Source of the DNA: Clostridia bacterium
Lineage (GTDB): Bacteria; Bacillota; Clostridia; Christensenellales; Aristaeellaceae
Reading direction: 5' to 3'
DNA: 64,000 bases
Assembly: GCA_017470145.1 (NCBI GenBank)
Contig: JAFUFB010000022.1
Location: 62,001 to 126,000 of the forward strand
Position numbers and translations under genes: made by a program. Of this stretch, positions 3 to 3,255 are shown one piece after another. A model generated the notes under the pieces. It ran no database searches. It was not told the origin of the DNA and saw nothing but the letters and a program-made list of their open reading frames with translations. Numbering within the stretch: position 1 is the first letter of the stretch; each line of letters starts with the position of its first letter.

Positions 3-1613
3 CTGGTGGATGCCAAAGAGTATGGATCTATTCTGAATGTGCCGGAGCTGGATTGGGATTTGCTGAGACGGTATATGGCAGAAATTGATGATGCCGCGCA
101 GATCAGTATAGATAGTATTGGGATTGATGAAGCGCAGGTTGAAATTCAGAGGCTGATTGATCAGGCCCAGGCCATGGGGCAGAAGTATCACGCTGTGGTG
201 ACAAATCCGCCGTATATGGGTAGCAGTGGTATGGGAGCTAAGCTTTCTCAATATGTCAAGGATCATTACCCGGATAGCAAGAGCGATTTATTTGCAGTAT
301 TCATCGAGCATATTCGAGATATGTTGATACAGAATGTTTATCAAGCAATGATCACCCAGCATGCTTGGATGTTCCTTTCCAGCTACGAGAAATTGCGCGG
401 GAAACTACAAACTATAGATATGGTGAACATGACTCATCTTGGGGCAAGGGCATTTGAAGAAATTGGCGGAGAGGTGGTACAAACTACCGCATTCGTACTG
501 CAAAACGTGCATATAGCTGGATACAAAGGTACATATTGCCGACTGGTTGAACCCATTACGCAACAAGGTAAGGAAGATATGTTTGTGTCTGGCAAAAATC
601 GATATATTGCAAAGCAGGATAACTTCATCAGGATACCGGGTGCGCCGGTGGCGTATTGGGTGAATCAAAAACTAATTGAAAACTTTGAAAGAAAGTCTAT
701 TTCAGATTATGCAGATACAAGACGCGGGCTTCAAACTGGTAATTCACCTAAATTTATACGTTTTTGGTATGAAATTGATATTTCAAAAATGTCTTTGATT
801 TGGAGCAGAAATGCACGGGAATCAGAATATAAGTGGTTTGCATTAAACAGCGGTGGTAGTTTTAGGCGTTGGTATGGTAATATAGTTAATGTTGTTAATT
901 GGTATCATAAGGGAAGGGATATAAAATCAACAGGAAGTGCAATCATACCTTCTGAAGATAGATATTTCGATTGTGTTGTTAGCTGGAATAAGATTTCTTC
1001 GGGGACACTATCAGTTAGATATCAGAATGCAGGAATAATACCAGGTGATGCCAGCCCATATTTGCATTCACCTGGGGGTGATATTGCCTTGCTCAAATAT
1101 GTAATGGCTATGCTTAATAGCAAAGTGTCATCAAAATATGCTCAGTTTATAAGCCCTACGCTTAATTTTGAGGTTGGCAATATTGCAAAGCTGCCGCTGA
1201 TAGTTTCTAATTTTGGAGAAGTTGGGAATCTGACGGATGATTGTATTCTCCTTTCTCGCACAGATTGGGACTCCTTCGAAACCTCCTGGGATTTCCAGCG
1301 TCACCCTCTTCTTCCGGCCCCGACAGAAGAAATCAAAGATCAACCTTCTTCTACTCTTTCCGAACCCACCACGACATACCAACCCGACGATCCTATCGAC
1401 GATAAAACCATGGAATTCGCAATCTTTTGCGTCGAAAATATCGCTTCAGACATTCATCGCGATGCCATCGAAGTCTATGATCTGTTGACCAGGGATAGCG
1501 ATATCCTGTATTCTTACATCATTCCATGCTATGAACCGCTGCATACCCAGGATAAGGGATATATCTGCGAGGATATTGAGCAGGTGATGCAGGAGAGGGG
1601 GCTGATTGGATGA
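3..1613 (+). CDS. pglX: BREX-1 DNA methyltransferase PglX, methyltransferase half (5' partial), fused to a C-terminal DUF3791 domain
   Basis: The reading frame is open from the window edge, so the true start lies upstream. The adenine-methyltransferase motif NPPY is at 204-215 (TNPPYMGSSG), followed by the target-recognition region. The typical PglX segment DWDSFETSWDF lies near 1263-1300. In ordinary PglX the chain would then continue into the (A)[23 protein letters not shown] region; here it instead runs through a Pro/Ser/Thr-rich linker (about 1310-1400) into a DUF3791-type domain (about 1410-1610, FCVENIA...IIPCYEPLHTQ...YICEDI). The rest of PglX is encoded from about 2335. An internal ATG at 1410 could be the start of an ancestral free DUF3791 gene. 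The stop overlaps the next start by 4 bases. PglX is required for host methylation and for phage exclusion in BREX. Whether the two halves reassemble is unknown. Confidence 0.9.
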   Translation: MVDAKEYGSILNVPELDWDLLRRYMAEIDDAAQISIDSIGIDEAQVEIQRLIDQAQAMGQKYHAVVTNPPYMGSSGMGAKLSQYVKDHYPDSKSDLFAVFIEHIRDMLIQNVYQAMITQHAWMFLSSYEKLRGKLQTIDMVNMTHLGARAFEEIGGEVVQTTAFVLQNVHIAGYKGTYCRLVEPITQQGKEDMFVSGKNRYIAKQDNFIRIPGAPVAYWVNQKLIENFERKSISDYADTRRGLQTGNSPKFIRFWYEIDISKMSLIWSRNARESEYKWFALNSGGSFRRWYGNIVNVVNWYHKGRDIKSTGSAIIPSEDRYFDCVVSWNKISSGTLSVRYQNAGIIPGDASPYLHSPGGDIALLKYVMAMLNSKVSSKYAQFISPTLNFEVGNIAKLPLIVSNFGEVGNLTDDCILLSRTDWDSFETSWDFQRHPLLPAPTEEIKDQPSSTLSEPTTTYQPDDPIDDKTMEFAIFCVENIASDIHRDAIEVYDLLTRDSDILYSYIIPCYEPLHTQDKGYICEDIEQVMQERGLIG

Positions 1614-2083
1614 TCGTTTATCATGGATCAGATCAGGAAATCAGATATCCGGACGTGCTGCACTCCCGGAAACGAGTAGATTTCGGTCCGGGATTTTACG
1701 TTACGCCCATTTACAAGCAGGCGCAAAGCTGGGCTAGCCGATTTCTGCGCAATGGGAAGCCCGGCGTCATCACGGAATACGTGCTGGATGATACAGCGCT
1801 GGAGCTTCCCAATGTGCTTCGCTTTGATGAATATAACGAAGAATGGTTGGACTATATCTTTGCCTGCCGGAAAGGTAAGGTTCCGGGAAACTACGATATT
1901 GTCATGGGCGGCGTGGCAAATGATAAGGTTTTTGATACGGTGGAGCTTTTCTTTGCTGGATTGATTGACAAGACGGTTGCCTTAAGCCGGCTGATCTATG
2001 AAAAGCCCAATTATCAGATCTGTCTTCGAACGCAGAGGATCATCGATGACTATCTGCAATTCAGAGGGAGTGAAGTGCAATGA
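1610..2083 (+). CDS. DUF3990 protein, putative ADP-ribosyltransferase-fold toxin nested inside pglX
   Basis: This is a 157-residue protein with the DUF3990 signature: YHGS near the N-terminus, then a DFGPGFYVT segment and a following QAQSWA helix. DUF3990 is usually related to the ADP-ribosyltransferase fold and commonly lies between or beside small DUF3791 genes. A toxin role is inferred from that context and not proven. The start codon overlaps the stop of the PglX-DUF3791 gene (ATGA), and its own stop overlaps the next start in the same way, so the three genes should be translationally coupled. It interrupts the otherwise contiguous pglX coding information. No frameshift or internal stop is seen, so it looks intact. 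Confidence 0.8.
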
Positions 2084-3255
2084 ATGCCAATCAGACGCTG
2101 CTGCAAATGAAATATGCACGTGTTGTATCCCTGTTCGCGTCGAAAACACAGATTCCCATGGCCAAGGCGTTGGATTTTTTCTATCACTCTACGGAATATC
2201 AGATGATGCGGGAGGGGGTTGGAGACCTTCATTGCATGACGGAGGAATATCTGGTAGAAGATTTGATTCGCGAATGGAAGGGGGAGGGACGCTACTCTCC
2301 ACAAAAATTTGCCTCCAAAGCTGTTTATGTTCGTGACACCTGGCAAGCCTGGGAGCAGCAGTGCGAATCCCGGTTTCAGCAGCTGAAAGCAAACGAGGAG
2401 GAGCTAAATCGCATCTTCATTGACATCTATGGCTTGCAGGATGAATTGACACCGGAAGTGGCGGACAAAGATGTCACGGTTCGAAAGGCGGACCTGGGGC
2501 GGGATATCCGTTCGCTGATTTCTTATGCCGTGGGTTGCATGTTTGGCCGCTACTCCATTTCCAAAGACGGTCTCCAGTTTGCCGGAGGGGATTGGGAAGC
2601 ATGGAAAAACAATCCTCAGTTTTCAATTCTCAATTCTCAATTTTCTGTTGATCCCGATAACTGCATCCCCATTACCGATGAATCCTATTTTGAAGATGAC
2701 ATTGTTGGACGTTTTGTAGAATTCATCCGCGTAGTGTATGGCCCGGAAACACTGGAAGAGAACCTTGAGTTCATTGCAAAGGCTTTGGGAAACAAGGGGA
2801 ATACCAGCAGGGAGATGATCCGAAATTACTTCCTGAACGATTTCATCAAAGATCATATCAGGATCTATCAAAAACGCCCGATCTACTGGATGTTCGACAG
2901 CGGAAAACAGAATGGCTTCAAAGCGTTAGTCTATATGCACCGCTGGAATGCGGATACCGTAGGCAACCTGCGCGTGGAATACTTGCATCGCATGCAGCGC
3001 GTATATGAGAGAGAAATTGAGCGCATGCAGGATATCATCGACAACAGCAAGGATAATCGGGAAGTGAACCAGGCCAGTAAGCGCCGTGAAAAGCTGGTAA
3101 AGCAGCTGAAGGAAGCCAGAGACTATGATGCTAAAATTGCTCATGTGGCGCTATCCCGAGTGGGGATTGATCTGGACGATGGCGTGAAGGTAAATTACGA
3201 GAAAGTCCAGAAAGGGCCGGATGGCAAGAGCCTGGGTATTCTGGCGAAGATGTAA
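2080..3255 (+). CDS. pglX: DUF3791 domain fused to the C-terminal part of BREX-1 PglX
   Basis: The product has 391 residues. Residues 1 to about 70 match the second type of DUF3791 domain ([10 protein letters not shown]...[14 protein letters not shown]...[10 protein letters not shown]). From about residue 85 the sequence is the conserved PglX C-terminal region: [63 protein letters not shown], and the closing [20 protein letters not shown]. Together with the 3..1613 product this accounts for the C-terminal two-thirds of a normal PglX, with the DUF3791-DUF3990-DUF3791 cassette inserted between the two parts. Both junctions are in frame. A linker near residues 181-189 is encoded by a short heptamer repeat. 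The start overlaps the DUF3990 stop. Confidence 0.88.
2623..2643 (+). repeat. Three-copy heptamer repeat inside the PglX C-terminal half
   Basis: Two exact copies of TCAATTC are followed by one near copy (TCAATTT). They encode an [13 protein letters not shown] linker between the conserved GRYS...AGG and [10 protein letters not shown] blocks. A change of one 7-base unit would shift the frame, so slippage could switch this part of PglX off. The tract is short, so this is only a possibility. Confidence 0.6.

What the first reader, a model, noticed from the sequence alone, without database searches (positions are those of the whole stretch)
3..3255. BREX pglX split by an in-frame DUF3791-DUF3990-DUF3791 cassette, giving two PglX-DUF3791 fusions around a putative toxin
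Seen: PglX sequence stops after DWDSFETSWDF (about 1300), continues into a DUF3791 domain (about 1410-1610), then a complete DUF3990 gene (1610-2083), then a second DUF3791 domain (2080 to about 2290) that runs directly into the missing PglX C-terminal block (from about 2335). Both fusion junctions are in frame and all genes overlap by ATGA, so an accidental insertion or assembly error is unlikely. Known: PglX is normally one chain; DUF3791 and DUF3990 genes commonly occur together. Inference: the two DUF3791 domains may hold the PglX halves together and keep DUF3990 inactive, so loss or inhibition of PglX would free the toxin, a built-in guard for BREX. I do not know of a description of this arrangement.
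Basis: partly seen in the sequence, partly recalled or inferred. Interest (0 to 1): 0.92.

Follow-up and report, generated by a model that had tools for sequence, protein, structure and literature searches.

The report
Toxin cassette nested in split PglX
In this bacterium the DNA-marking enzyme of an anti-virus system is encoded as two half-proteins, each joined to a likely antitoxin and with a likely toxin gene between them; other bacteria carry quite different defence genes at the same place, so the site looks like an unrecognised slot where backup weapons are stored.

Summary
A type 1 BREX operon has pglX cut in the linker between its methyltransferase/target-recognition half and its C-terminal half. 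In the cut sits a complete DUF3791–DUF3990–DUF3791 cassette (PADLOC candidate PDC-M13); the first DUF3791 is fused to the N half, the second to the C half, with ATGA overlaps. No PglX sequence is missing. L077 has the same cassette in the same place with the same N-side fusion; PglX C halves reject a common origin (p-AU 0.0004), N halves do not formally (0.095). The place is a general slot: of 98 PglX loci from two collection scans, 7 hold at least 90 bp of extra internal DNA, 6 of them at this linker; five more loci, picked as known or suspected splits, also have it there. Cargo elsewhere: AbiH, TIR/SpbK, a PIN toxin pair, FRG, DUF559, DUF4357, unnamed genes. Best reading: DUF3990 is an ADP-ribosyltransferase-type toxin held by DUF3791 antitoxins welded to PglX, a guard that works like PrrC in EcoprrI. 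Toxicity, binding and release are inferred. The 'bridge' idea is possible but not needed: other slot loci lack tethers.

The parts
3..1313 (+). PglX N half (methyltransferase end and target recognition domain); gene begins 1360 bp before window base 1, at L004:12641
   Evidence: NPPY and SAM-binding motifs in the alignment
1314..1409 (+). linker PglX N - DUF3791, rich in P/E/D/S/T, poor in hydrophobic residues
   Evidence: 4 of 32 hydrophobic, P 0.0033 against translations of the BREX region in all six frames
1410..1610 (+). DUF3791 no. 1 (PDC-M13A type), C-terminal domain of the PglX N protein
1610..2083 (+). DUF3990 gene, 157 aa, ART-clan family, PDC-M13B; residues H5, Y30, Q136
2080..2295 (+). 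DUF3791 no. 2 (PDC-M13C type), N-terminal domain of the PglX C protein
2329..3255 (+). PglX C half (spacer helix, wHTH, C-terminal coiled-coil region)
   Evidence: domain names from PMC12839542 section 17 and PMC11341690 passages
3367..5871 (+). pglZ
   Evidence: Pfam PglZ E 1e-50
5849..7954 (+). brxL (listed ORF; TTG start as listed, true start may be further in)
   Evidence: Pfam BrxL_ATPase E 1e-145
7986..8216 (+). third, unfused DUF3791 gene behind brxL, without its own DUF3990
   Evidence: L128 has DUF3791+DUF3990 in this place

Best explanation
Anatomy (shown): the linker between the target-recognition domain and the C-terminal half of BREX-1 PglX is a cargo slot; here it holds a whole PDC-M13 cassette in its usual order, with both DUF3791 partners fused in frame to the two PglX halves. 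Mechanism (inferred): DUF3990 is an intracellular ADP-ribosyltransferase-type toxin, DUF3791 proteins neutralise it by binding, and PglX assembles from two chains. Because the antitoxins are part of PglX, neutralisation depends on an intact, correctly assembled PglX. When a phage destroys, displaces or blocks PglX (for example with the DNA mimic Ocr, which binds the PglX C-terminal domain; PMC11341690 passage), the toxin is freed and the cell stops growth before phage is released. The toxin thus backs up BREX, as the PrrC tRNase backs up EcoprrI. The coupling also punishes loss of pglX.
For: Complete and undecayed parts in one operon with ATGA coupling. Same cassette, same slot, same N-side DUF3791 fusion in L077 inside a full BREX operon; PglX C halves reject common descent of the two (p-AU 0.00038, 48 rows), and L077's nearest PglX relatives by that tree, L066 and L071, are uninterrupted. 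The slot is specific: of 98 loci taken from two collection scans without regard to splitting, 7 have at least 90 bp of extra DNA inside PglX and 6 of the 7 lie within residues 880-914 of a 1270-aa PglX (binomial P 3e-9 against a uniform spread, not corrected for kinship or for selection against harmful breaks). Where cargo could be named it is of defence or toxin type: AbiH, TIR/SpbK, PIN, FRG, DUF559, DUF4357. Both fusion linkers look like flexible tethers. DUF3990: Pfam family of the ART clan (PMC7955679 passage), Y and Q invariant 24 of 24, H 20 of 24. Antitoxin role: cassettes with DUF3990 broken (L045 and L046, near-copies of each other) or gone (L130) keep both DUF3791 genes. Precedent for the logic: PrrC/EcoprrI/Stp (PMC2610378 abstract and passages).
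Against: No measured toxicity, binding or release. Nine of the 11 slot inserts are not DUF3791/DUF3990 and show no fusion to PglX, so a slot resident need not be wired to PglX. The N-half tree does not formally reject a shared origin of window and L077 (p-AU 0.095), nor does the DUF3990 tree (p-AU 0.458), so the cassette may have moved between slots rather than arrived twice. Only two cassette-in-slot loci were found; among 44 other same-genus genomes 3 have PglX C matches and none a fusion. Cassettes of the family sit unfused next to intact pglX (L081, L086, L096), and 0 of 30 DUF3990 loci had a pglX match within the about 1.5 kb held on each side. 20 of 86 DUF3990 places had no DUF3791 found within 400 bp, among them L108 inside a BREX operon, so some DUF3990 may do without; the model used is not exhaustive (Pfam finds a DUF3791 next to one of these, in L043). 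No solved structure resembles DUF3990 by sequence, and Pfam's ART-PolyVal match is below cut-off.
Confidence: 0.45

Rival explanations
1. Passive or selfish lodging. The PglX linker merely tolerates a break; toxin-antitoxin and other defence genes settle there because the operon expresses them and their removal harms pglX. DUF3791 fusions are read-through by-products and PglX does not control the toxin.
For: Slot cargo is very varied and, apart from the two cassettes, unfused; the split state needs 11 changes on the PglXC tree with nine undetermined loci left out, 12 with them counted as unsplit, 5 of these forced by well supported branches, i.e. gained and lost often; close relatives L066 and L071 of L077 carry uninterrupted pglX; cassettes or DUF3990 genes sit at other BREX positions too (L081, L086, L096, L108, L128).
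Against: Both known cassette-in-slot loci have the PglXN-DUF3791 fusion, with linkers poor in hydrophobic residues, and the window has a second fusion; in the 398 genomes only the window's genome has a DUF3791 match over the cut-off in a long open frame (995 aa).
Confidence: 0.35
2. Toxin as bridge. DUF3990 binds one DUF3791 on each PglX half and so glues a split methyltransferase together; removing the toxin would cost BREX its activity.
For: Two fusions on two halves around one small protein is the layout such a bridge would need.
Against: The nine other slot loci have no such fusions, and in L077 only one half is tethered; if those PglX work, halves meet without a bridge.
Confidence: 0.08
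3. C half as a shared subunit. PglX is split so that one C half can serve several N or target-recognition modules, and the cassette is a passenger of that arrangement.
For: L050 and L051 carry two alternative target-recognition modules before the cargo and a single C half; the window's recognition domain has GC3 0.29 against about 0.57 around it, a sign of exchange.
Against: Window and L077 have one recognition domain each; the own genome has a single N half.
Confidence: 0.07
4. Dead or artefactual locus: assembly join, or a pglX broken by a recent insertion.
For: Draft genome of 30 contigs, 83.7% complete.
Against: Separate locus L077; a named complete record (Collinsella aerofaciens, L288) with split pglX and a 200-aa ORF in the same slot; intact frames, motifs and composition.
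Confidence: 0.05

Closest known systems
PDC-M13 (PADLOC-DB candidate system: DUF3791 + DUF3990 + DUF3791)
   Same: all three proteins match its A/B/C models in the usual order; a PADLOC survey lists 3324 occurrences in rumen genomes (PMC13356809 passage)
   Different: stand-alone cassettes have three small genes; here both partners are domains of a split PglX
PrrC anticodon nuclease with EcoprrI (type I restriction-modification)
   Same: toxin gene linked to a DNA-modifying defence system that keeps it silent; released by a phage anti-restriction factor (PMC2610378 abstract and passages)
   Different: PrrC is an ABC-ATPase tRNase lodged in the hsd region (title of Linder 1990 in the reference list seen; that it lies between whole genes is recalled); here the gene is inside pglX, is of the ART clan, and has its own putative antitoxin domains; silencing and release are untested
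Backup effectors in BREX loci (PARIS, HEPN-MNT, PIN, Schlafen; BrxU in pEFER; two-gene ATPase/DUF4435 region in StySA)
   Same: abortive or nuclease effectors embedded in BREX operons (PMC12839542 section 35 part 1; PMC8565348 passages; PMC9009780 passages)
   Different: described next to or between core genes; no split pglX, no ART-type effector and no fusion to PglX in the parts read
Streptomyces Pgl, PglX/PglZ as toxin/antitoxin
   Same: a toxin-like hazard tied to PglX (PMC4365076 abstract and passages)
   Different: there PglX itself is toxic without PglZ; here a separate enzyme would be

Membership tests
Type 1 BREX | brxA, brxB, brxC, pglX, pglZ, brxL in one operon | tested here: met
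   pglX in two pieces
Type 1 BREX | site-specific host methylation and phage exclusion | not testable with these tools
   needs methylome and plaque assays
PDC-M13 | A, B and C proteins matched in the usual gene order | tested here: met
   PDLC04434 (M13A) 1.5e-28, PDLC04438 (M13B) 5e-60, PDLC04442 (M13C) 1.7e-30
PDC-M13 | three separate small genes (usual state in the loci seen here; not a stated PADLOC rule) | tested here: not met
   A and C are fused to PglX halves; hence a variant
ADP-ribosyltransferase superfamily, H-Y-[EDQ] clade | H, Y and E/D/Q at the three active-site positions | tested here: inconclusive
   H5, Y30, Q136 present; Y and Q 24 of 24, H 20 of 24; that Q136 is the third active-site residue is my assignment; clade rule from PMC7955679 passage
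ADP-ribosyltransferase superfamily, H-Y-[EDQ] clade | ART fold | not tested
   structure prediction not available; sequence profile finds no solved relative; Pfam ART-PolyVal E 0.0016 only, below cut-off
Type II toxin-antitoxin system | small toxin gene translationally coupled to antitoxin genes | tested here: met
   ATGA overlaps; DUF3791 within 400 bp of 66 of 86 DUF3990 places, 49 of 67 without loci fetched through DUF3791
Type II toxin-antitoxin system | toxicity and neutralisation by direct binding | not testable with these tools
   needs expression in a laboratory strain
PrrC-like guard of a restriction system | effector gene inside the operon of the guarded system | tested here: met
PrrC-like guard of a restriction system | effector silenced by the restriction protein and released by an anti-restriction factor | not testable with these tools
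   fusion of the putative antitoxins to PglX suggests silencing only

The most novel reading that the evidence does not exclude
The PglX linker is a dedicated weapon slot of BREX: defence cargo is exchanged in and out of one point of a core gene, and in the DUF3990 version the antitoxin has become part of the methyltransferase, so that the assembled PglX is itself the antitoxin and any attack on PglX arms the toxin.
Probability: 0.35. Interest if true: 0.87.

Novelty: new variant of a known kind. Interest (0 to 1): 0.76.

Why it matters
If true, BREX carries a built-in tripwire on its specificity subunit, a direct answer to phage inhibitors of PglX. The slot also gives a search rule: genes lodged between PglX halves are likely backup effectors, including several with no family name; it may have been overlooked because the C half can be annotated as a hypothetical protein (L288). 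It is directly testable in laboratory strains.

Tried and rejected
Assembly or decay artefact: rejected (L077, L288, composition, intact frames). A natural single-chain DUF3791-DUF3990 fusion that would show the interface: none among the loci held. Same-genus conservation of the fusion: none (45 genomes with the own one, 4 with a match). Family of 300 and order of 396 genomes with the DUF3791-PglXC protein: 18 and 17 with a match (own included), no other row spanning both parts. Class: 33 of 391 genomes with PglX C, split frames in the own genome and G695 (several short or cut rows not followed). Family of G838: 14 of 40 genomes, 18 places, none split as judged by open-frame length. Family of G390: 2 of 74 genomes with PglX C, one split. 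Plasmid collection: 283 records match; I saw 60 best and 60 spread rows (overlapping; the rest unseen); by the span of the match only H75 had non-IS cargo, while H106 and H171 hold IS elements elsewhere in pglX (roughly residues 740 and 620 from feature positions); H121, looked at for a two-piece match, is annotated as one pglX. DUF3791 fusions in general: 398 genomes, 14 with DUF3791, only the window's genome over cut-off in a long frame; one sub-cut-off match in a 396-aa frame (G1516) not followed. L101, L057, L016, L058, L093, L109 are broken or rearranged elsewhere, or orphan C halves, and were not counted as slot splits; L128 is split without cargo. DUF3990 against PDB: only two chance-level matches (E 0.6); DUF3791: a helical-repeat match (8vd6, E 1e-4, no stretch passing alone), not followed. 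tRNA, Rfam: nothing in the window.
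Full report
CHECK. The window opens inside pglX of a type 1 BREX operon. With the upstream DNA (L004) the order is AbiEi, AbiEii, brxA, brxB, brxC, pglX N half fused to DUF3791, DUF3990, DUF3791 fused to pglX C half, pglZ, brxL, a third DUF3791. 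Both fusions are in frame, both cassette junctions are ATGA overlaps. The BREX_1_MTaseX model is covered end to end by the two proteins. The N half aligns up to E. coli BrxX residue 870 and Salmonella PglX residue 888, shortly behind the target-recognition domain (E. coli 651-837, CTD from 838; Salmonella 662-849, spacer helices 850-960; passages of PMC11842806, and PMC11341690).

THE CASSETTE. PADLOC's models name the three proteins PDC-M13A, B and C, a candidate defence system listed 3324 times in rumen genomes (PMC13356809 passage). DUF3990 belongs to Pfam's ART clan (PMC7955679 passage); Y30 and Q136 are invariant in 24 of 24 aligned relatives and H5 in 20 of 24, which suits the H-Y-[EDQ] clade by sequence; that Q136 is the third active-site residue is my assignment, and the fold was not tested. 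DUF3791 lies within 400 bp of 66 of 86 DUF3990 places, or 49 of 67 when the 19 places on loci fetched through DUF3791 are left out; 20 of 86 had none found, although Pfam sees one the model missed (L043). Where the toxin is broken (L045 and its near-copy L046) or gone (L130) both DUF3791 genes remain, as expected of antitoxins.

A SECOND LOCUS. A genome scan with the PglX C half, capped at the best 80 of 533 confirmed places, gave 80 named loci. L077 (uncultured Acetatifactor, CANREV010000006.1) has a full BREX operon with PglXN-DUF3791 in one frame, DUF3990, a free DUF3791 and a free PglX C half. On PglX C halves the two loci are not a clade (p-AU 0.00038, 48 rows); on PglX N halves the held tree is 49.7 log units worse but p-AU is 0.095 (73 rows); on DUF3990 a clade is not rejected (p-AU 0.458, 58 rows). 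The likeliest reading is that the cassette reached the slot of two PglX lineages, from outside or from slot to slot.

THE SLOT. I scanned 103 PglX loci with natural intact PglX queries for at least 90 bp of extra internal DNA. 98 of them came from the two collection scans: 7 have such DNA, 6 at residues 880-914 of a 1270-aa PglX (L063, L065, L077, L099, L132, L228) and one elsewhere (L236); binomial P 3e-9 against a uniform spread, not corrected for kinship. The other five (window, L038, L050, L051, L223) were taken because they were known or suspected splits; all five have it at the slot, and L050 and L051 are close kin. Intact PglX proteins vary in length and sequence at just this linker. 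Cargo: AbiH in L038 (Pfam 2.6e-47); TIR in L050 (TIR_2 5e-7, PADLOC spbK 1.7e-61) and L051 (TIR_2 3.4e-6, plus DUF4357); DUF4357 in L065; DUF559 in L132; PIN (PIN_3 1e-15) with a small unnamed partner in L099; FRG/PDC-S15 in L228; unnamed ORFs in L063 and L223; DUF3791-DUF3990-DUF3791 in the window and L077. L039, L074 and phage record L289 have other genes directly before a free C half but the N half is off the contig. Collinsella aerofaciens NZ_OY725717.1 (L288) shows a 200-aa unnamed ORF in the slot in a named complete record, with the C half annotated as hypothetical protein. Of 150 distinct PglX C loci 14 are slot splits (L128 without cargo; L013, the same as L039, and L074 with the N half unseen) and nine were left undetermined; among the 107 loci of the two collection scans alone it is 8. 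The label needs 11 changes on the tree with undetermined loci left out, 12 with them counted as unsplit, 5 of these forced by well supported branches.

HOW IT MAY WORK. Shown: slot, cassette, fusions, recurrence. Inferred: toxin, neutralisation, release. Since the nine other slot loci have no such fusions, these are probably not needed to join PglX; what they add is a tie between antitoxin and methyltransferase. Both N-side linkers are poor in hydrophobic residues (4 of 32 and 9 of 44; P 0.0033 and 0.0076), as tethers are. The simplest use is a guard: PglX loss or blockade frees DUF3990. A well studied system of this logic is PrrC/EcoprrI (PMC2610378 abstract and passages), and BREX loci are known to gather backup effectors (PMC12839542 section 35 part 1). 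The main rival, passive lodging in a tolerant linker, explains the other cargo equally well.

NOVELTY. No paper found describes a pglX split by cargo or a DUF3791-PglX fusion: full-text searches (listings seen, not every listed paper opened) and the parts of PMC12839542 read; supplements and most subscription papers were out of reach. It works like a PrrC-type guard (inferred) but is not shown to be one; it is a variant of PDC-M13 and of embedded BREX effectors.

Noticed in passing
window 7986-8216: Third DUF3791 gene behind brxL without a DUF3990; L128 has DUF3791 plus DUF3990 in the same place (44% identical DUF3791), so this may be the antitoxin left from a second module.
   Followed up: partly
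L004 5340-6683: AbiEi/AbiEii pair upstream of brxA; a low-GC stretch (41-50% against mostly 55-64% in the rest of the window) runs from about L004 5000 to about window 8000.
   Followed up: partly
L035 (G000:C30 end): A second PglX C fragment followed by brxL at a contig end: a second BREX locus in the same genome, cut off by the assembly.
   Followed up: partly
window about 560-1220: Target-recognition domain of PglX has GC3 0.29 against about 0.57 around it, a sign of recent specificity exchange.
   Followed up: no
L050 4002-5495 and L051 5062-6601: Split PglX with two tandem target-recognition modules, each ending in the same motif, before the TIR cargo and a single C half: an HsdS-like modular PglX.
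   Followed up: no
L043 1-6459: Two DUF3990/DUF3791 cassettes in tandem between an Eco57I-type methylase (cut by the contig end) and a ResIII helicase gene: the cassette also lodges inside a restriction-modification operon.
   Followed up: partly
L081, L086, L096 about 10.97-11.97 kb: Cassette of another order (DUF3990, then two small genes, the second DUF3791) between intact pglX and pglZ.
   Followed up: no
L045 about 6852-7569, L046 about 6779-7496, L130 about 15232-15715: Cassettes with the DUF3990 gene broken or missing but both DUF3791 genes kept.
   Followed up: no
L219, L221, L222: Partial DUF3990-like matches inside long open frames (741-1984 aa) of viral contigs.
   Followed up: no
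window 56000-62000: Second low-GC patch (42-49%) with ORFs that look like AAA ATPases by eye, not examined by profile search.
   Followed up: no
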